Shown one piece after another: positions 7,578 to 35,007 of a stretch of DNA of 64,000 nt. A model generated the notes under the pieces. The model was not told the origin of the DNA. It worked only from the letters and a program-made list of their open reading frames with translations, and did not search any database. The stretch comes from an uncultured Pelagibacteraceae bacterium (GTDB lineage: Bacteria; Pseudomonadota; Alphaproteobacteria; Pelagibacterales; Pelagibacteraceae), in NCBI GenBank assembly GCA_902604975.1, contig CACLAY010000002.1, forward strand, positions 62,001 to 126,000, written 5' to 3'. The position numbers and the translations under genes are program-made. Within the stretch, counting starts at the first letter, position 1; every line of letters starts with the position of its first letter.

Positions 7578-8624
7578 ATGGGTCCAGAAAATAGTAAATT
7601 GTCAACTTATTTGAGAGTTTTAAGCTATTCAGTCTTAGCATTTACTCTGGCATTTTTAATTAATAACTTATTTACAGTTTGGGGCGGTTGGCCAGGTATT
7701 AAAAAGGTTTTTTCTCATTATGATTTGTTTGGTTATAAGCAAAAGTCTTTAGAGTCATCTGATTTAACTTATGGTTATATTCAAATTTTAATATATGTAG
7801 TTTGTATTCTCTCAGTTATTTTTTATGTCTTCAAGACATACTCACAAACTTTAGTTGACGATTCAAAAATATTATCAAAATTTTCAGCGTATTTAATTAG
7901 AGGATCTTTTTGGGCTGTATTTTTAGTTGGTTTAGCTGATTTCATAATTTCATTTATGGTTGTTGAAAGATTGTGGGAAGCTATATTTAGTCCTGAGGTA
8001 AAAGCTTTCATGGTAAAAGCCCCAGAAAGAATAACGTACATACATTTTCCAATAATATTAGTTTCATTTATTATAGGTTACTTTACAAAATCTGTTGGTT
8101 TTATATGGCTAGCAGTATTGGTAGTTTTAAGTGAATTTGTGATTGTTTTATCTAGATTTGTTTTCTCTTATGAACAAGCTTTTCAAGGAGATTTAGTTAG
8201 ATTTTGGTATGCGGCTTTATATTTATTTGCAAGTGCTTATGCTTTAATTCACGAGGGCCATGTTAGAGTTGATGTACTTTATTCATCTTTTAGTGAGAAA
8301 AAAAAGGCTTGGACCAATATGGTTGGTTCAGCGTTATTAGGGGTTCCTCTTTGTTTAATAGTTTTATTTTTAGGTTTAAATGGTAAAGCAAGTATTATTA
8401 ATGGACCTGTAGTTGCCTTTGAAGTTACACAACAAGGTTCTAATGGATTATACCTTCTTTATTTGATGGCGGTTTATTTAGCAGTTTTTGCCGTCACAAT
8501 GCTATTACAATTTACTAGCTATTTTATGTCTAGTAGCCATAAAATTATTTTTAATAATATTGAAGATCAAACTCAATCAGACAATTCAGATCAAGTCAGA
8601 TTAGAAAAAGTAGAGAGTAATTAA
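7578..8624 (+). CDS. TRAP transporter small permease, DctQ-like, with long N-terminal extension
   Basis: A 348-residue membrane protein with about eight or nine hydrophobic segments. DctQ proteins are usually near 160-200 residues with four helices. Here the DctQ-like part is the C-terminal half (FWYAALYLFASAYALIHEGHVRVDVLYS, about residues 211-238, then GPVVAFEVTQQGSNGLYLLYLMAV). The first 140 or so residues add extra membrane segments. It should form the membrane complex with the following DctM. The stop and next start share one base (TAATG at 8624). The last 40 residues are charged and cytoplasmic-looking. No strong ribosome binding site is seen before the ATG. Confidence 0.85.
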   Translation: MGPENSKLSTYLRVLSYSVLAFTLAFLINNLFTVWGGWPGIKKVFSHYDLFGYKQKSLESSDLTYGYIQILIYVVCILSVIFYVFKTYSQTLVDDSKILSKFSAYLIRGSFWAVFLVGLADFIISFMVVERLWEAIFSPEVKAFMVKAPERITYIHFPIILVSFIIGYFTKSVGFIWLAVLVVLSEFVIVLSRFVFSYEQAFQGDLVRFWYAALYLFASAYALIHEGHVRVDVLYSSFSEKKKAWTNMVGSALLGVPLCLIVLFLGLNGKASIINGPVVAFEVTQQGSNGLYLLYLMAVYLAVFAVTMLLQFTSYFMSSSHKIIFNNIEDQTQSDNSDQVRLEKVESN

Positions 8625-11275
8625 TGGAGTTATTATTTTTAGCTATTCTGGTTTTAATTATGATTGCAGCACTTGCTTCAGGTTATCCAGTGGCTTTTGC
8701 TCTTCCCGGTTCTGCAATAATTTCCATTGGTTTAGCTGCATTTTTTGGAGCAATATTTGAGGGAGACTCAAGCGCTTATTTCACAGTTGATGGACCTATA
8801 GAATGGTTAGTAGCTGGAATTACTAATTTTAGAAGTAACTATTGGGATGTTGAAACAGACACTTTAATTGCAATTCCTTTGTTTATTTTTATGGGGATAA
8901 TGCTTCAGAAATCTAAAATAGCTGAGGACTTACTAATTACTATGGGCCAACTATTTGGTCCTATTCCTGGTGGATTGGGTATTTCGGTAATTTTTGTAGG
9001 AGCCTTACTTGCTGCAACTACAGGAATAGTTGGTGCTACCGTTATCGCAATGGGACTAATTTCTTTACCAACAATGTTAAATAATAATTATGATCGTAAA
9101 CTTGCGAGTGGTATTGTTTGTTCATCTGGAACTCTTGGACAGATAATCCCTCCTTCAATTGTTTTAATTATTATTGCTGACCAATTAGCTAGTGCCTCAG
9201 ATGTTGCAAATAATATTAGACAAAATGATTACAAAGCAATCACCGGTGAATTCAATATGCCAGGTGAGTTTAGAGTTGGATCTTCTAGTGCTGGAGATAT
9301 GTTCTTGGGCGCTTTGTTACCAGGACTAGTTCTAGTAGCATTGTATATGATATATGTCTTCATTTATGCAAGAATTAAAAAGGGAGTTGCACCCCCTGTT
9401 CCATTTAAAGGAACTTTTGATTTTAAATTTTGGTTGAGAGTTATAGTTATTATCATCCCTCCTCTTGCACTTATATTTGCTGTATTAGGATCAATATTAA
9501 TGGGTATTGCAACTGTTAACCAAGCTGGTTCTATTGGAGCAATTGGCGCAACTTTAATGGCTGGATATAGGTTGTTTGAAGGTAAGAAAAGTGCATTTTA
9601 TCCTTTAATACTAATTATAGGATCAATAATACCTATTACTTTTCTGGCTTCAACTTATGAACTCAATGTAAAAAATTTAGAAGAAAGAGATTTGGGTGCA
9701 ATTTACATTACAGCATTTTTTGTAATTATACTTGTTTATGGAATAGCATGGAGCTTCTGGAGAAGTTATAAAACAGACAACGTACTAAAAGAAGTTGTTA
9801 CAGAAACTTGTATTACCACTTCAATGGTTTTCATAATTCTATTAGGTGCTGCAATGCTTACATCAGGATTTAGAGCATTTGGTGGAGAAGAGTTAGTAAG
9901 AGATTTTCTTCAAGATCTACCTGGGGGTTTCTGGACACAGTTTATTGTCGTTATGGTTGTAATTTTCCTTCTAGGCTTCTTTTTGGACTTTATAGAAATA
10001 GCTGTTGTAGTGGTTCCGATTATTGCACCAATATTACTTGCTGAAACAGGTGCGAACGTTACAGCAGTATGGCTTGGAGTAATGATAGGTGTAAATCTAC
10101 AGACATCATTCTTAACTCCACCATTTGGGTTTGCTTTATTTTATTTAAAAGGAGTAGCTCCAAAAATAATTCAGACATTGGATATATGGAAAGGTGTTGT
10201 GCCTTTCATAGCGCTACAGCTAATTGGCCTTGGTATTGTAGGTTTTTATCCAAGTCTTGTTAATTATCTGCCTAACAGAGTTTATTTAACCTCTAATGTT
10301 GCTCCACCTCCAATGAACCCTAAACTTCAATACTGTTTGCAAGAATACAAATTTGCAAACTTTGAAACTAACGGAGATCAAATTAAAACTAGTATCAATG
10401 AATTTGATGATATCATTTTAGCAAATTTACCCTCAGATAAATTAAGTTACTTCCAACGTCATGTTGATAATTCTAAATATTCTTTTGAATTGGTAGATGA
10501 AGTTAAGAGTGCTCAGTCAATCTATGATGACTATGCGGTTGATTATAGAGATTTACATTTTAAAACAAGAAAAAAACAAAAGAAAATTATGAAATTAAAT
10601 AAAAAGATAGATAAGTTTAAAGCTGAAATAAGAAATCTTGATGATGAGGATGTATCAGATAAAAATAAAATTTTGCAAAAAATTGAAAATGTTAAGCTAG
10701 AGATAGAAGAAATTCAAAATACAATTCCTCAGGAGTGGAAAGCTAAAAATGATGAGTTTAATAAAATTAATAAAGCAAAAAATTTAGCTGTAAAAAAATA
10801 TAAAAAGACTGTGGATAATGCATATGAAGATTTATTATTAATTAAGGAATTTATAAATGATGGGGAAAAATTTGAAGAATTAAGTCAAGATATGAAACTT
10901 CTTAAGTCAAAAATAGATAATAGAGGTTATATTGATGCGATAGAATTTATTGATAATATTTTTGAAAAAGTTGGAGAAATTTCAGGATCAGATGAATTTG
11001 CTGATAAGCTAGATTATTTAATTACCCTTATGGATGAAGATGAAGTTGATTTCGAAAAACTCCAAAGTTCAGCAAATGATACTTATGTTCTATTCCAGCA
11101 AGAGATTGACTGGAGAAAAAATTTTAAGAAAAAGCACATGGATAAAATAACTACTCATGATAAAGTTATTAGTGAAACTATTGGATTACGTCTGCAATCA
11201 AAACTTACAAAAGAGCAAGCGATTTATGTCTCAAAATGTAATTCAATACATAGAGACATTTCTCTAAACTTTTAA
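8624..11275 (+). CDS. TRAP transporter large permease, DctM-like, with long charged C-terminal tail
   Basis: An 883-residue protein; ordinary DctM subunits are about 430. Residues 1-550 are membrane-embedded. They include FIFMGIMLQKS, GATVIAMGLISLPTML, SGTLGQIIPPSIVLIIIADQ and the second DctM repeat ending NLQTSFLTPPFGFALFYLKG. Extra helices lie between the two halves (about residues 230-400). After PNRVYL (residue 549) comes a tail of about 330 residues that is hydrophilic and Lys/Glu-rich, with heptad-like stretches such as KIMKLNKKIDKFKAEIRNL, so much of it is probably coiled coil. The tail is in frame and AT-rich like its surroundings. The stop codon abuts the stop of the convergent gene with no spacer. 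Confidence 0.88.
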   Translation: MELLFLAILVLIMIAALASGYPVAFALPGSAIISIGLAAFFGAIFEGDSSAYFTVDGPIEWLVAGITNFRSNYWDVETDTLIAIPLFIFMGIMLQKSKIAEDLLITMGQLFGPIPGGLGISVIFVGALLAATTGIVGATVIAMGLISLPTMLNNNYDRKLASGIVCSSGTLGQIIPPSIVLIIIADQLASASDVANNIRQNDYKAITGEFNMPGEFRVGSSSAGDMFLGALLPGLVLVALYMIYVFIYARIKKGVAPPVPFKGTFDFKFWLRVIVIIIPPLALIFAVLGSILMGIATVNQAGSIGAIGATLMAGYRLFEGKKSAFYPLILIIGSIIPITFLASTYELNVKNLEERDLGAIYITAFFVIILVYGIAWSFWRSYKTDNVLKEVVTETCITTSMVFIILLGAAMLTSGFRAFGGEELVRDFLQDLPGGFWTQFIVVMVVIFLLGFFLDFIEIAVVVVPIIAPILLAETGANVTAVWLGVMIGVNLQTSFLTPPFGFALFYLKGVAPKIIQTLDIWKGVVPFIALQLIGLGIVGFYPSLVNYLPNRVYLTSNVAPPPMNPKLQYCLQEYKFANFETNGDQIKTSINEFDDIILANLPSDKLSYFQRHVDNSKYSFELVDEVKSAQSIYDDYAVDYRDLHFKTRKKQKKIMKLNKKIDKFKAEIRNLDDEDVSDKNKILQKIENVKLEIEEIQNTIPQEWKAKNDEFNKINKAKNLAVKKYKKTVDNAYEDLLLIKEFINDGEKFEELSQDMKLLKSKIDNRGYIDAIEFIDNIFEKVGEISGSDEFADKLDYLITLMDEDEVDFEKLQSSANDTYVLFQQEIDWRKNFKKKHMDKITTHDKVISETIGLRLQSKLTKEQAIYVSKCNSIHRDISLNF

Positions 11276-21305: not shown

Positions 21306-21800
21306 ATGTTAAAAATGCGTTTATCAATGGGAGGAACTAAGAAGAGACCAGTTTATAAGATAGTGGTTGCTGATAGTAGATTTCCAAGAGATGGAAGATT
21401 TATAGAAAAATTAGGTTTTTTTAATCCTCTAATTCCGAGAGAAAAAAAAGAAAGAATGGGATTAGATGTTGAGAGAGTTAAGTATTGGCTGGGTCAAGGG
21501 GCACAACCAACAACTAGAGTTGCAAGATTATTAGGAGAAAATGAGATTATGCCTATGCCAGCAAAAGGTAATAATCCTCAAAAAGCAATTCCAAAAAAAG
21601 ATAGAAAGAAAACTGATGAGGGTGGCGAAGCTAAAGCAGATGCTCCTAAAACAGAAGCTCCGAAGGAAGAAGCTAAAACAGAAGCTCCGAAGGAAGAAGC
21701 TAAAACAGAAGCTAAAACAGAAGCTTCAAAGGAAGAAGCTAAAACAGAAGCTCCAAAGGAAGAAGCTAAAACAGAAGCTCCGAAGGAAGAAGCTAAATAG
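21306..21800 (+). CDS. rpsP: 30S ribosomal protein bS16 with repeat tail
   Basis: The first 80 or so residues are ordinary bS16 ([21 protein letters not shown], then [13 protein letters not shown] and [12 protein letters not shown]). Usual bS16 length is 80-120, but this protein has 164 residues. The rest is a low-complexity tail of five copies of the nine-residue unit TEAPKEEAK (two bases vary) plus a short partial copy. The tail is alternately Lys/Glu charged and likely disordered. AGGAG five bases before the ATG is a good ribosome binding site. The gene is followed after 4 bases by trmD; rimM, which usually sits between them, is absent. rplS three genes on has the same kind of tail. Confidence 0.95.
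21651..21797 (+). repeat. 27-base in-frame tandem repeat in rpsP
   Basis: Five copies of a 27-base unit beginning ACAGAAGCTCCGAAGGAAG lie at 21651-21677, 21678-21704, 21717-21743, 21744-21770 and 21771-21797, with a 12-base partial copy at 21705-21716. All encode TEA(P/S)KEEAK. Such direct repeats can gain or lose units by slippage without breaking the frame. Confidence 0.9.
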
Positions 21801-22489: not shown

Positions 22490-23032
22490 ATGAAAAATAT
22501 TGAAGAAATAAACAGATCAAATTTAAACAAGATTATTTCTGAGAGAAAACATCCTGATTTTTTTCCTGGAGACATCGTTAAAGTTGGGGTTAGGATAACA
22601 GAGGGTAAAAGAGACAGAATTCAATATTTTGAAGGTGTATGTATCGCAAAAAAGAGTAGAGATATCAATTCATCTTTTACTGTTAGAAAAATTTCTTTTG
22701 GTGAGGGAGTAGAAAGAACTTTTGCATTATATAGCCCAATTGTTGATACAATAAAAGTTGTAAGATCAGGAAAAGTAAGAAGAGCAAAATTATACTATCT
22801 AAGAGATAGAACTGGTAAATCTGCTAGAATAGCTGAAAAAATTAAGAAGACGATTGGTATTGATTTAGAAACTAAAATTAATGAGGTTACTGAGGAAAAC
22901 GTAATGCCATCAACTGATCCTCAAACAGAAGCTCCTAAAGAAGAAGTTAAAGCAGAAGCTCCTAAAGAAGAAGTTAAAGCAGAGCCTGTAAAAACAGAAG
23001 AACCGAAAGAAAATCAAGAACAGAAAAAATAA
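22490..23032 (+). CDS. rplS: 50S ribosomal protein bL19 with repeat tail
   Basis: A 180-residue protein; normal bL19 is about 115-130. The core shows [58 protein letters not shown]. The last 45 or so residues are a disordered-looking tail with two exact copies of EAPKEEVKA followed by [14 protein letters not shown]. This closely resembles the tail on bS16 in the same operon. It is the last gene of ffh-rpsP-trmD-rplS, with 11 bases to leuC. Confidence 0.96.
22925..22978 (+). repeat. 27-base tandem repeat in rplS
   Basis: Two adjacent 27-base units (22925-22951 and 22952-22978) differ only in their first base and encode (T/A)EAPKEEVK. They are similar in sequence and length to the rpsP repeat. 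Confidence 0.85.
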
Positions 23033-30752: not shown

Positions 30753-31763
30753 ATGAATATAGCAATAGTAGGAGCGACAGGAAACGTAGGTCGAAAATTA
30801 ATAGAAGTTTTGGAAAAAAAAAACTTTCCAATAACAGAGGCGTACTTAGTTGCGTCTTCAAATAGCGAAGGAAAAAAAATTAATTTTTTAGGAAAAGAGC
30901 ATACTGTTAGTAATTTAGAACAATTTGATTTCTCAAAAGTAAAAATTGCTTTTTTTGCAGCTGGTTCTTCAATTGCTGAAAAATGGGCACCGATCGCAGC
31001 AGAAAAAACAATTGTAATAGATAATTCAAAATTCTTTAGAAAAGATCCAGAAATTCCTTTAATTGTTCCAGAGGTAAATTCCAAAGAATTACCTAAATTT
31101 AAAAATAAGAATATTATAGCAAATGCCAATTGTTCAGTAATACCAATAGTTGTAGCTCTCAAACCATTACATGATTTGTATAATGTAAAAAGAATAGTTG
31201 CATCAACTTATCAATCTGTATCAGGAGCAGGCAAGGCAGGAATGGATGAACTTATATCCCAAACTAAAGAAGTCTTGGAAAATAAAGATGTTGAGTCAAA
31301 AAATTTTACTAAGCAAATTGCTTTTAATGCTATACCACATATTGATAGTTTTCTTGAAAATGGAAGCACAAAAGAAGAGCAAAAAAATCATGATGAGGTA
31401 AAAAAAATTTTAGATAGTAAAATTAATATAACATCTACTTGTGTAAGAATCCCTGTTCTTGTTTCTCACTCCATAAGTGTGAATGTTGAATTTAACAAAA
31501 AACATGACTTAGAAGAAATAAGAAATGTCTTATCATCATCACCTGGATGCAAGGTAGTTGATGAGCAAAAAGATGGAGGATACATTACGCCTGTTGAAGC
31601 CGAAGACAAATTTGAAACATTCATATCAAGAATTCGTGAGGACTCTTCTCAACCAAATTCAATTAATTTGTGGGTTGTGTCTGATAACTTATTAAAAGGT
31701 GCTGCACTTAATGCAGTTGAAATTGCTGAGGCTTTAGTAGAAAAAGATTTTTATGGAAAATAA
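30753..31763 (+). CDS. asd: Aspartate-semialdehyde dehydrogenase
   Basis: A 336-residue NADP enzyme of the lysine, threonine and methionine pathway. The N-terminus has the Rossmann motif VGATGNVGRKLIEVL. The catalytic cysteine is in NANCSVIPIVVAL (about residue 130). QSVSGAGKAGMDEL and CVRIPVLVSHSISVNVEF follow, with the terminal NLLKGAALNAVEIAE. It lies 19 bases after dmdA and overlaps sdhC by 11 bases, so it is probably read together with the respiratory genes. Confidence 0.96.
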   Translation: MNIAIVGATGNVGRKLIEVLEKKNFPITEAYLVASSNSEGKKINFLGKEHTVSNLEQFDFSKVKIAFFAAGSSIAEKWAPIAAEKTIVIDNSKFFRKDPEIPLIVPEVNSKELPKFKNKNIIANANCSVIPIVVALKPLHDLYNVKRIVASTYQSVSGAGKAGMDELISQTKEVLENKDVESKNFTKQIAFNAIPHIDSFLENGSTKEEQKNHDEVKKILDSKINITSTCVRIPVLVSHSISVNVEFNKKHDLEEIRNVLSSSPGCKVVDEQKDGGYITPVEAEDKFETFISRIREDSSQPNSINLWVVSDNLLKGAALNAVEIAEALVEKDFYGK

Positions 31764-32136
31764 AAATCCAATATCGCCACATATACAAATTTATAATTGG
31801 CACATTTCCTCACTGGTTTCAATTTCACACAGAATAACTGGTATAATAAACTTTTTCACTATAACTTTTATAGGTATATGGATAGCCTCTTTATTGTTGG
31901 GTGAACAGAGTTATCAGAATATTAATTTGTTCTTATCATCTTTTTTAGGCAAATTTTTTTGTCTTGGAATTATTTGGTCTTTTTCATTTCAAATGCTTAG
32001 TGAAATAAGACATTTGTTTATGGATTTAGGTTATGGTTTTGAGCAAAAAACTACAAAAATAACAGGATTAATTGTGCTAATCGGATCATTTCCACTTACT
32101 GTAATAATCTTTATTATTGGAAGAGTTTTAATTTAA
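31753..32136 (+). CDS. sdhC: Succinate dehydrogenase cytochrome b556 subunit SdhC (heme ligand replaced)
   Basis: A 127-residue membrane anchor of complex II with three hydrophobic helices. It begins with the usual ISPHIQIYNWHISSLVSISHR, keeping the quinone-site Ser23, His26 and Arg27. IRHLFMDLGYGFE at about residues 85-97 is diagnostic. The heme b ligand of the family (His84 in E. coli, seven residues before the His of IRHxxxD) is Gln80 here (FQMLSEIRH), and the following Gly is Glu. It overlaps asd by 11 bases and shares one base with sdhD. Confidence 0.9.
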   Translation: MENKNPISPHIQIYNWHISSLVSISHRITGIINFFTITFIGIWIASLLLGEQSYQNINLFLSSFLGKFFCLGIIWSFSFQMLSEIRHLFMDLGYGFEQKTTKITGLIVLIGSFPLTVIIFIIGRVLI

Positions 32137-32459
32137 TGGGATCAGTTACAAAAAAATGGTTGTTCTTAAAAGTAAGTTCTGCAATATTAGTGCCATTAAT
32201 GCTATGGTTTGCGATTAATCTAGCTTCTATTTACGACAAAGGCTTTGAACAGATATTACTGTTTGTGTCTTCTCAACCTTCAAAGTTTTTGTTAAGTCTT
32301 TTTTTGATTTTTGCATATTTTTTCTCTGCACTAAGTATTAGTGAGGTTTTTGAGGACTATATCGAAGATCAAAAAATCAAAAATGCCGCAAATAAATCTT
32401 TAAATATCTTTGCTATAGTATTTCCATTATTAATCATTATCTTAATATTTAGTTTATAG
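32136..32459 (+). CDS. sdhD: Succinate dehydrogenase membrane anchor SdhD (heme ligand replaced)
   Basis: A 107-residue protein with three hydrophobic helices, called from its place between sdhC and sdhA and from the EDYI motif (residues 73-76) whose tyrosine belongs to the quinone site. In alphaproteobacterial SdhD the heme b histidine lies 12 residues before that tyrosine (HxMLGMRVVIEDY). Here the position is Phe63 and the conserved Gly is Ser67. The N-terminal [13 protein letters not shown] corresponds to the usual HHWLLQRVTGIIL. It starts on the last base of sdhC. Confidence 0.88.
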
Positions 32460-32461
32460 TT

Positions 32462-34237
32462 ATGAGTGCATACAAAATTATTGATCATGAATATGATGTT
32501 GTTGTTCTAGGTGCAGGTGGTTCTGGGCTAAGAGCAGCTGTAGGATTAAGTGAAGCTGGATTAAAAACTGCATGTGTCTCTAAAGTGTTCCCAACTAGAA
32601 GCCACACCTCCGCAGCACAAGGTGGTATTTCAGCAGCACTTGGAAATATGGGTGAAGATGATTGGAGATGGCATATGTACGACACTGTTAAAGGTGCTGA
32701 TTGGTTGGGAGACCAAGACTCTATAGAATATTTATGTAAGGAAGCACCAGCTGCTGTTCTAGAATTAGAAAAGTATGGAGTTCCATTTAGTAGAACAGAT
32801 GATGGCAAAATTTATCAAAGACCTTTTGGTGGCATGACAAAAAACTATGGAAATGAGACTGTACAAAGAACTTGTGCAGCAGCAGATAGAACTGGACATG
32901 CAATACTTCACACATTGTATGGACAAGCTTTAAAACATAATACCGAATTTTTTATTGAATACTTTGCGCTAGATTTAATAATGAAAGATGGAGCATGCAA
33001 AGGTATAATTGCTTGGAACCTCAATGATGGAACAATTCACAGATTTAGATCCCACACAACTATTATAGCAACAGGGGGTTATGGAAAAGTGTATTACTCA
33101 GCTACTTCAGCTCATACTTGCACTGGAGATGGTAATGCCATGGCTCTTAGAGCTGGATTACCTTTACAAGACATGGAATTTGTACAATTTCATCCAACGG
33201 GAATATATGGTCATGGAACATTAATTTCTGAAGGTGTAAGAGGAGAAGGTGGTTATTTAGTAAATTCAAAAGGAGAAAGATTTATGGAGCGTTATGCTCC
33301 TAAAGCAAAAGATTTAGCATCTAGAGATGTTGTAAGTAGATCAATTGCTGTAGAAATTAATGAGGGTAGAGGTATTGGAAAAGAACAGGATCATGTTCAT
33401 CTTCATATTGATCATTTGGATCCAAAAGTTATAGATGAGAGACTTCCAGGAATATCAGAGGCTTCAAAATTATTTGCAAATGTTGATGTAACTAAGGAAC
33501 CTATACCAGTAGTACCTACAGTGCATTATAATATGGGTGGAATACCAACAAATTATAAAGCTGAAGTTTTAACATTAAATGGATCTGAAAAAACTGTACC
33601 TGGGTTAATGGCTATTGGAGAAGCAGCATGTGTTTCTGTTCATGGCGCAAATAGATTAGGTTCAAACTCATTAATAGATTTAGTAGTTTTTGGAAGAGCG
33701 GCAGCGAAAAGAGCTGCAGAGTTAGTAAAGCCTGGAATGAAGCATGATGAAATTGATAAAAATGAAACGGATAGATGTTTAGATAGATTTGACAAATTAA
33801 GAAACTCAGAGGGTTCGAATCCAACATCTGAACTGAGACTTTCAATGCAAAAAACGATGCAATCAAAATGTGCTGTATTTAGAACTGAGAAAACATTAAA
33901 GGAGGGCGTTGATGAAATTAGAAAACCTTATGATGGAATGGACTCTCTTTCTGTAAAAGATAAGTCATTAATCTTTAATACTGATTTAGTTGAAACACTA
34001 GAATTTGACAACTTAATAAGACAAGCAATAACTACAATGGACTCTGCGTATCATAGAAAAGAAAGCAGAGGAGCTCATGCAAGAGAAGATTTTCCAAAAA
34101 GAGATGATGAGAATTATATGCAACATACTCTTTCTTGGTGTAATGGTTCAAAAACTAAAATTAATTATAGACCTGTTCATAGATCAACACTTACAAATGA
34201 TGTACAATATTTTCCTCCACAGGAAAGAGTGTATTAA
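32462..34237 (+). CDS. sdhA: Succinate dehydrogenase flavoprotein subunit
   Basis: A 591-residue FAD protein that oxidises succinate. It has the dinucleotide motif [16 protein letters not shown], the flavin-attachment histidine in [12 protein letters not shown] (about residues 45-56) and the active-site [35 protein letters not shown] and [17 protein letters not shown] follow. Length matches the family. It is two bases after sdhD and shares one base with sdhB, giving sdhCDAB. Confidence 0.97.
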
Positions 34238-35007
34238 TGGTTCAACTAAATTTACCTGCAAACTCAAAGGTAGAAAAAGGTCAATATTATAAAGATAAAA
34301 CAGGTTCAAAAAATATTAGAAAAATAAATATTTATAGATGGGATCCATCTAAAAATGAAAATCCAAGACTTGATACTTATGAAGTTGATATGGATAATTG
34401 TTCATCTAAAGTCCTTGATGTTTTAAACAAAATAAAAAATGAAATAGATCCTTCTATAGCTTACAGAAGATCTTGTGCCCATGGAGTTTGTGGATCTTGT
34501 GCGATGAATATGAATGGAAAAAATGGTTTAGCATGCACGAAGTCCCATTCTGAACTGGATGGAGATATTGATATTTATCCCTTACCACATCTAAAAGTCT
34601 TAAAAGATTTAATCGGTGATTTAAGCACATTATATAAACAATATGAGTCTGTTGAACCTTGGTTAAAAACCTCAAAAGTAAATGATAAAGAGAATATCCA
34701 ATCTAAAGACGATAGAGCAAAATTAGATGGATTATATGAATGTATTATGTGTGCATGTTGTTCAACGTCTTGTCCAAGTTATTGGTGGAACGGTGAAAAA
34801 TATTTAGGTCCCGCAGTTTTACTTCAAGCTTACAGATGGATAATTGATAGTAGAGACGAGGACAGAAAAGAAAGACTGAAAAAGGTTGCTGACGAACTTA
34901 AGCTTTATAGATGTCATACTATCTTGAATTGCACAAATGCTTGTCCCAAGGGCTTAAATCCTGCAAAAGCTATTGCAGAGATAAAGAAAATGCTTGCAAC
35001 AGCTTAA
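34237..35007 (+). CDS. sdhB: Succinate dehydrogenase iron-sulfur subunit
   Basis: A 256-residue electron-transfer subunit with three Fe-S clusters. The 2Fe-2S cysteines are in [18 protein letters not shown] and the 4Fe-4S and 3Fe-4S cysteines in [17 protein letters not shown] and [17 protein letters not shown]. The quinone-site Trp (PSYWW) and His (RCHTI) are kept, so electrons can still pass from the 3Fe-4S cluster to ubiquinone, even though the anchors lack heme ligands. It starts on the last base of sdhA. Confidence 0.97.

What the first reader, a model, noticed from the sequence alone, without database searches (positions are those of the whole stretch)
31990..32324. Succinate dehydrogenase membrane anchors lack both heme b ligands
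Aligned by eye to alphaproteobacterial and E. coli proteins, the SdhC heme histidine (seven residues before the His of IRHxxxD) is Gln80 (codon 31990-31992) and the SdhD heme histidine (12 residues before the Tyr of EDY) is Phe63 (codon 32322-32324). The adjacent conserved glycines are also changed (to Glu84 and Ser67). The quinone-site residues (SdhC Ser23, His26, Arg27; SdhD Tyr75; SdhB Trp and His) are kept. So this looks like a working complex II that has lost heme b. Heme removal is tolerated in E. coli mutants, but a natural heme-free type C enzyme would be notable and fits iron saving in the open ocean.
Basis: partly seen in the sequence, partly recalled or inferred. Interest (0 to 1): 0.8.

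Follow-up and report, generated by a model that had tools for sequence, protein, structure and literature searches.

The report
Ocean bacterium's heme-free respiratory complex II
The membrane part of succinate dehydrogenase in this SAR11-type bacterium has lost both residues that normally hold its heme and carries a replacement like one in yeast's heme-free enzyme, so it probably works without heme, as most of its close relatives sampled here probably do.

Summary
SdhC Gln80 (31990-31992) and SdhD Phe63 (32322-32324) sit at the heme b ligand positions, E. coli His84 and His71, by sequence and by a gapless structural match. Both +4 glycines are gone (Glu84, Ser67), quinone-site residues are kept, and SdhD has no histidine. 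It is a lineage trait: in SAR11 family f1, 154 of 164 loci lack one or both histidines and all 154 carry Glu at SdhC +4; the 10 loci with both have Gly. Intermediates suggest SdhD His went first, with SdhC Gly to Glu; SdhC His to Gln followed, probably three or more times. A sister SAR11 family and five other alphaproteobacterial families also lost a ligand; four of the five have Glu at SdhD +4, the place of yeast Glu112, which replaces a heme-propionate contact in heme-free yeast complex II (PMC13066397 passages). Best reading: a working, heme-free complex II of type C descent, with Glu84 standing in for the propionate. Eukaryotic precedents exist; nine searches showed no bacterial one. Iron saving is not shown. 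Heme content itself was not measured.

The parts
31753..32136 (+). sdhC, complex II large membrane anchor, 127 aa, lacks the heme ligand His
   Evidence: TIGR02970 118.7 bits, PF01127 99.8 bits; three long helices predicted, mean pLDDT 88.1
31990..31992 (+). SdhC Gln80, position of E. coli heme ligand His84
32002..32004 (+). SdhC Glu84, replaces the conserved Gly at ligand +4; proposed stand-in for the heme propionate
   Evidence: Glu in 154 of 154 SAR11 f1 ligand-lost loci, Gly in 10 of 10 f1 loci with both His
31828..31833 (+). SdhC His26-Arg27 (E. coli His30-Arg31), kept
   Evidence: Arg 145 of 145, His 142 of 145 distinct f1 ligand-lost pairs
32136..32459 (+). sdhD, complex II small membrane anchor, 107 aa, no histidine
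   Evidence: TIGR02968 45.3 bits; matches E. coli SdhD 2wdq_D with Z 14.1, rmsd 1.8, 105 aligned; His list empty
32169..32171 (+). SdhD Lys12, position of E. coli Arg20 (propionate side, recalled)
   Evidence: K 141, R 4 of 145 distinct f1 ligand-lost pairs; R 73, K 8 of 81 loci with both His
32199..32201 (+). SdhD Met22, gained in the ligand-lost clade; pocket filler or, less likely, a new ligand
   Evidence: Met in 150 of 154 ligand-lost f1 loci, 2 of 81 loci with both His
32322..32324 (+). SdhD Phe63, position of E. coli heme ligand His71
32334..32336 (+). SdhD Ser67, replaces the conserved Gly at ligand +4
32358..32360 (+). SdhD Tyr75 (E. coli Tyr83), quinone site, kept
   Evidence: Tyr in 145 of 145 distinct f1 ligand-lost pairs
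32462..34237 (+). sdhA flavoprotein, intact
   Evidence: TIGR01816 950 bits; 53% identical to E. coli SdhA
34237..35007 (+). sdhB iron-sulfur subunit, intact, quinone-site Trp and His kept
   Evidence: 50% identical to E. coli SdhB over 231 aligned positions

Best explanation
sdhCDAB here encodes a functional succinate:ubiquinone oxidoreductase that descends from the one-heme type C enzyme but no longer binds heme b. Electrons run from FAD through three Fe-S clusters to quinone, a route that does not need the heme. Shown by sequence: both axial ligands are absent, both pocket glycines are replaced, SdhD has no histidine, quinone-site residues are kept, and the anchor genes are under purifying selection. 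Inferred: the emptied pocket is closed by Phe63, Gln80, Ser67 and Met22, and Glu84 of SdhC takes over the charge of a heme propionate, holding Arg27 (and perhaps Lys12 of SdhD) in place beside the quinone site, as Glu112 of Sdh4 does with Arg97 of Sdh3 in heme-free yeast complex II, here from the opposite subunit. Also inferred, from the intermediates: SdhD His and the SdhC glycine went in the stem of one SAR11 clade; the SdhC His, now free of its task, later became Gln several times.
For: Ligand columns. Within SAR11 f1, Glu at SdhC +4 in 154 of 154 ligand-lost loci against Gly in 10 of 10 with both His. Over the 253 loci counted, each of the 172 ligand-lost loci has lost at least one +4 Gly, while the 81 loci with both His have Gly at SdhC +4 in 81 and at SdhD +4 in 79. 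In a further set of 24 loci chosen for weak anchor scores, 23 could be read and all 23 are His/His. Intermediates (SdhC His with SdhD Phe or Asn) in g5, g6, one g1 locus and named loci. Losses also in f2 (SdhC Tyr or Asn) and in families f64, f87, f112, f137, f140, four of these five with Glu at SdhD +4. Yeast precedent with Tyr108, Glu112 and Arg97. An E. coli heme-free variant keeps significant activity and supports growth on succinate (PMC3290573 introduction). Median pairwise dN/dS 0.166 for sdhC (1024 pairs) and 0.214 for sdhD (1622 pairs) among SdhC-Gln loci (pairs not independent). The same genome has a cytochrome b with two His-x13-His pairs at 100/114 and 201/215, the usual heme b ligands as I recall them, so heme b is not generally abandoned.
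Against: No heme measurement exists here. E. coli axial-ligand mutants can retain heme (title of a 2001 paper in the reference list seen), so ligand loss alone is not proof, most of all for one-ligand lineages. SdhC His26 and His87 remain. SdhD Met22 was gained in the same clade. Three g1 loci (L215, L218, L224) carry His at the SdhD position with Gln in SdhC, and one g1 locus (L217) carries SdhC His. The pair test of ligand loss against acid at +4 had 6 independent pairs on well-supported branches, 4 the same way, 0 opposite, 2 without difference, p 0.0625 to 0.125; against loss of a +4 Gly, 5 the same way, 0 opposite, median p 0.0625; too few to reach 0.05. f2 genera g7 and g9 and locus L242 lost a ligand without an acid at +4. 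SAR11 loci with both His have lower medians of dN/dS (0.09 from 3 sdhC pairs, 0.16 from 9 sdhD pairs), which would fit some relaxation.
Confidence: 0.87

Rival explanations
1. Heme b is still bound, through other ligands (SdhC His26 or His87, or the newly conserved SdhD Met22), as in E. coli ligand mutants that retain heme.
For: E. coli axial-ligand mutants can retain heme (reference title seen). Met22 is Met in 150 of 154 ligand-lost f1 loci and in 2 of 81 loci with both His. His26 and His87 are His in 142 and 144 of 145 distinct ligand-lost f1 pairs, somewhat more often than the same positions in the (more diverse) loci with both ligands, 76 and 74 of 81.
Against: His26 and His87 equal E. 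coli His30 and His91 and are mostly present where the usual ligands exist too, so they need no new role. A Glu and a bulkier residue replace the +4 glycines. Met22 lies 10 residues along the first helix from the residue at E. coli Arg20, by helix geometry nearer the far edge of a heme than its iron (inference). The old ligand positions vary freely.
Confidence: 0.08
2. The loss is an adaptation that saves iron in the open ocean.
For: The ligand-lost clade includes many single-cell genomes titled AG-..., which I recall to be ocean samples. SAR11 responded to added iron in the California Current (PMC11069385 passages).
Against: About 1 of 10 iron atoms per complex would be saved (9 in the Fe-S clusters; established knowledge). 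Among 23 loci from non-SAR11 genomes of 1.5 Mb or less, 18 keep both histidines (habitats unknown to me). The f1 loss looks like one event, so habitat and descent cannot be told apart. I could not tie the His/His SAR11 loci to a habitat: the title of L176 names a deep cast, not a place.
Confidence: 0.2
3. Neutral replacement: heme b in type C complex II is a dispensable structural plug, and lineages with reduced genomes drift to protein-only packing without benefit.
For: Non-SAR11 losses lie mostly in small genomes: 5 of 23 loci from genomes of 1.5 Mb or less against 1 of 30 from larger ones (L237, 2.0 Mb), taking the 30 loci and the 23 readable loci (states). Catalytic activity in E. coli is not a function of heme redox potential (PMC3290573 abstract).
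Against: Glu84 is stricter than drift alone would leave it (154 of 154). The two sets were picked by hand from the sample and not matched for kinship; 12 of 45 and 4 of 28 genomes gave no SdhA match, and 3 more of the 45 matched but were given no locus.
Confidence: 0.5
4. The anchors are decaying, or the residues are assembly errors.
For: The window is from a draft genome 77% complete.
Against: The same states occur in many genomes, single-contig ones included (L007, L053, L196, L207), and in the named single-cell genome AG-457-O03, 99% (SdhC) and 98% (SdhD) identical; dN/dS is well under 1.
Confidence: 0.01

Closest known systems
S. cerevisiae complex II (Sdh1-4), heme-free type C
   Same: Type C fold and quinone site; SDHD ligand His replaced; a +4 Gly replaced by Glu; no heme in the map (PMC13066397 passages). 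The SAR11 models match yeast chains 9qdl_D (Z 10.1, rmsd 1.9, 91 aligned) and 9qdm_C (Z 9.9, rmsd 7.2, 119 aligned).
   Different: Yeast keeps the Sdh3 His and its Glu is in Sdh4. In SAR11 f1 the Glu is in SdhC, and 124 of 154 ligand-lost loci have lost both His. Eukaryotic, not bacterial.
E. coli succinate dehydrogenase SdhCDAB (type C, one heme b)
   Same: Operon order, subunits, quinone-site residues, fold
   Different: E. coli has His84 and His71, Gly at both +4 positions and Arg20; the window has Gln, Phe, Glu, Ser and Lys.
E. coli fumarate reductase FrdABCD (type D, no heme)
   Same: Two anchors without heme (PMC10238741 passages)
   Different: SdhC scores below the Fumarate_red_D cut-off (20.5 vs 25 bits) and far above that of Sdh_cyt (99.8 vs 25.8).

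Membership tests
Type C succinate:quinone oxidoreductase | SdhC and SdhD anchors of three transmembrane helices each, with SdhA and SdhB | tested here: met
Type C succinate:quinone oxidoreductase | Quinone-site residues SdhC Ser27, Arg31; SdhD Asp82, Tyr83; SdhB Trp, His (E. coli numbers) | tested here: met
Type C succinate:quinone oxidoreductase | One axial heme ligand from each anchor (His/His) | tested here: not met
   Gln80 and Phe63. Filed as a variant derived from type C.
Type C succinate:quinone oxidoreductase | One bound heme b | not testable with these tools
   needs spectroscopy or a structure
Heme-free type C subgroup (yeast-like) | At least one axial His replaced | tested here: met
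Heme-free type C subgroup (yeast-like) | Glu at +4 of the SDHD ligand position | tested here: not met
   SdhD has Ser67; the Glu is at the matching place in SdhC. The SdhD Glu is present in the f64, f87, f112 and f137 loci.
Heme-free type C subgroup (yeast-like) | No heme in the purified enzyme | not testable with these tools
   no enzyme at hand
Type D quinol:fumarate reductase (FrdCD) | FrdC/FrdD-type anchors | tested here: not met
   PF02313 20.5 bits for SdhC, below its cut-off of 25; no match for SdhD at E 0.001

The most novel reading that the evidence does not exclude
Most of the SAR11 family runs its respiratory chain on a heme-free complex II, and replacing the heme by a buried Glu at the +4 position of one anchor (a propionate mimic that holds the quinone-site Arg) is a recurrent solution, reached separately in several alphaproteobacterial lineages and in yeast, in either anchor subunit.
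Probability: 0.6. Interest if true: 0.8.

Novelty: new variant of a known kind. Interest (0 to 1): 0.72.

Why it matters
What heme b does in complex II is a long-standing question. SAR11 is among the most abundant bacterial groups in the sea (established knowledge). Here nature supplies a graded series inside one family: both ligands, one ligand, none, with a fixed compensating Glu. That makes the role of the heme testable by comparing close relatives, and it would change the heme and iron budget assumed for these cells. The +4 Gly to Glu change also gives a sequence test for finding heme-free complex II elsewhere.

Tried and rejected
Assembly error or pseudogene: rejected. Type D membership: rejected. 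A second sdh copy carrying the heme: Sdh_cyt matched only this pair in the window's 77% complete genome, and the 25 SdhA matches over the cut-off come from 25 different genomes; an unsequenced copy in the missing part is not excluded. General loss of b hemes: not so in this genome, cytochrome b and COX1 are present. Iron saving as a general rule of small genomes: not supported.

L146 (AG-439-C13), a His/His SAR11 locus, first fell inside the ligand-lost clade on the quick tree. Holding the ligand-lost f1 rows together gave a better likelihood (15.67 higher, p-AU 0.685), so I read it as an outside lineage. That tree has weak forks (47 of 134 inner branches drawn open) and joined long branches.

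Bias told. From the 197 genomes I read only part: 29 new loci from its own list and 60 taken, not all of them g1. The 30 class-level loci L082-L111 were the best matches to an SdhD profile, so they favour intact anchors. The sets were picked by hand for small size or weak or missing anchor score. In one search the ligand-lost set was defined partly by Glu at +4, which is circular for that column; one search recounted by ligands alone and gave the same 154. The SdhC structural alignment has high rmsd (6.2 against 1nek_C), so its register rests on sequence. My notebook entries call L176 a Lake Baikal locus; its title does not say so, and I withdraw that; the odds for iron saving were lowered for it.

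Paper searches: in the held open-access library, listings only (one search found no paper). None lists a heme-free type C complex II in bacteria or in SAR11; most subscription papers are not held. Seen: PMC13066397 (passages), PMC3290573 (abstract, introduction, one results section), PMC10238741, PMC11069385 and PMC10060162 (passages).

Full report
Observation. The window lies in a draft genome of 1.03 Mb, 77% complete. The genes from 31753 to 35007 are sdhC, sdhD, sdhA and sdhB, each over an NCBIfam cut-off and overlapping or nearly so. Named relatives are uncultured Pelagibacteraceae (SAR11), for example AG-457-O03, 99% (SdhC) and 98% (SdhD) identical. SdhC Gln80 aligns without a gap to E. 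coli His84. SdhD finds no related chain in a sequence search of the PDB, but its AlphaFold2 model (mean pLDDT 91.0) aligns with E. coli SdhD 2wdq_D over 105 residues at rmsd 1.8, Z 14.1, with a constant offset of 8, so Phe63 equals His71, Ser67 equals Gly75, Lys12 equals Arg20 and Tyr75 equals Tyr83. SdhD has no histidine; SdhC has His10, 17, 26 and 87. Quinone-site residues are kept in SdhC, SdhD and SdhB.

How general. I gathered 262 loci. Of these, 255 gave both anchors and 7 did not. With two repeats of the window dropped, 253 remain: 164 SAR11 family f1, 16 SAR11 family f2, 72 others and E. coli. The f and g codes are the tool's anonymous family and genus codes; loci with named titles were put in f1 or f2 by title, and L185 and L186 in f2 by their sequence. 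In f1, 124 loci lack both ligands, 30 lack one and 10 keep both. Genus g1, the window's own, has 75 rows, the window counted three times: 71 are Gln with Phe or Tyr, 3 Gln with His, 1 His with Phe. g5 has 12 His/Phe and 4 Gln/Phe, g6 one His/Phe; g2, g3 and g4 are His/His (2, 2 and 4 loci). In f2, g8 is His/His (4 of 4), g7 and g9 have SdhC Tyr with SdhD His (6 and 3), g10 has Asn with His (1). Of the 72 others, 6 have lost a ligand, from alphaproteobacterial families f64, f87, f112 (two loci), f137 and f140; in f140 the loss looks recent, since a genome of the same genus keeps both. A further set of 24 loci from genomes of 1.8 Mb or more, chosen for weak or missing anchor scores, gave 23 readable pairs, all His/His.

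The pocket changed with the ligands. In the 81 loci with both histidines, SdhC +4 is Gly in 81 and SdhD +4 is Gly in 79. In the 172 loci that lack at least one, at least one of these glycines is replaced in all 172. In f1 the SdhC replacement is Glu in 154 of 154. In four of the five non-SAR11 families Glu stands in SdhD, and in f112 in both subunits. Among 145 distinct f1 ligand-lost pairs, SdhC Arg31 is Arg in 145, SdhD Tyr83 is Tyr in 145, and SdhD Arg20 is Lys in 141 and Arg in 4, whereas the former ligand positions vary: SdhC Q 119, H 25, F 1; SdhD F 117, Y 23, N 2, H 3. So the Glu is held more strictly than the residues at the old ligand positions. SdhD Met22 also marks the clade: 150 of 154 against 2 of 81.

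Order of events (inference). On an SdhA tree of 141 rows (quick search, many weak forks, long outgroup branches) the ligand-lost f1 rows form one group once L146 is set aside; holding them together raised the likelihood. All of them have SdhC Glu, and all but L215, L218 and L224 lack SdhD His. SdhC Gln appears in g1 (with L217 as a His exception), in a g5 subset (L060, L080, L081, L231) and in L137, L138, L148, L162, with Phe in L140. The simplest account is that heme went first and the second ligand then lost its constraint; losses followed by regains cannot be excluded. Parsimony needs 12 changes for the SdhC ligand and 6 for the SdhD ligand over the whole tree, gains and misplacements included. 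A test on independent pairs had only 6 pairs: acid at +4 went with ligand loss in 4, against it in 0 (p 0.0625 to 0.125), so the link outside f1 is suggestive, not proven.

Mechanism. In E. coli, quinone is reduced directly from the [3Fe-4S] cluster; the heme is off the path, and a heme-free variant keeps significant activity and supports growth on succinate, though at lower rates (PMC3290573 introduction). In yeast complex II, found heme-free by cryo-EM in 2026, the SDHD His is Tyr108, the Gly four residues on is Glu112, and this Glu bridges Arg97 of Sdh3 in place of a heme propionate (PMC13066397 passages). Glu84 of SAR11 SdhC is the same +4 position on the other anchor, which makes the same role likely: shown for the position, inferred for the contact. 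The lineages with SdhD +4 Glu and SdhC Tyr have the yeast Glu exactly, with the Tyr on the other subunit. Purifying selection (median dN/dS 0.166 and 0.214 among SdhC-Gln loci; pairs are not independent and synonymous sites are partly saturated; His/His SAR11 gave 0.09 and 0.16 from 3 and 9 pairs) and intact SdhA and SdhB argue for a working enzyme. The same genome has a cytochrome b with two His-x13-His pairs, so the loss is specific to complex II.

Cause. Iron saving fits what I recall of the habitat but looks like one event in f1, and 18 of 23 loci from non-SAR11 genomes of 1.5 Mb or less keep both histidines. Losses outside SAR11 are more common in small genomes (5 of 23) than in larger ones (1 of 30), in hand-picked sets. 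A neutral swap of a structural plug for packed side chains fits equally or better.

Known or new. Heme-free type C complex II is known in S. cerevisiae and, by the same paper, Tetrahymena and Perkinsus. I found no report of one in bacteria in nine searches of the held library. I therefore file it as a new variant of a known kind. By strict definition it is not a type C enzyme, because the His/His ligands were tested and are not met; it most likely works like one without the heme. The open point is direct proof that heme is absent.

Noticed in passing
L242 and L245 (genus g150), anchors upstream of sdhA: Two genomes of one genus differ: one has SdhD Tyr/Ser with SdhC His/Gly, the other His/Gly in both. 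A recent ligand loss resembling the yeast state.
   Followed up: partly
L234, L237, L243, L244, L247: Unnamed alphaproteobacterial genomes of 1.2 to 2.0 Mb with SdhC Tyr and SdhD +4 Glu; their identity and habitat are not known here.
   Followed up: partly
window 32199-32201: SdhD Met22 is nearly fixed in the ligand-lost SAR11 clade and rare elsewhere; pocket filler or new function.
   Followed up: partly
window 21306-21800 and 22490-23032: The proteins that look like ribosomal S16 and L19 (named from memory) both end in similar repeats of the type EAPKEE(A/V)K.
   Followed up: no
window 8624-11275: An 883-aa transporter-like ORF with a long charged C-terminal tail of about 250 residues after the membrane part (read by eye).
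   Followed up: no
L215, L218, L224: SdhD His stands at the old ligand position in a Gln/Glu background (HSALTISE and HSSLSISE), possibly drift from Tyr.
   Followed up: partly
L062, L064, L069, L071 against L038, L041, L060, L076: In the four f2 loci printed the gene before sdhC is not the semialdehyde-dehydrogenase-like gene seen there in most f1 loci printed; L033 (g2, f1) has yet another neighbour.
   Followed up: no
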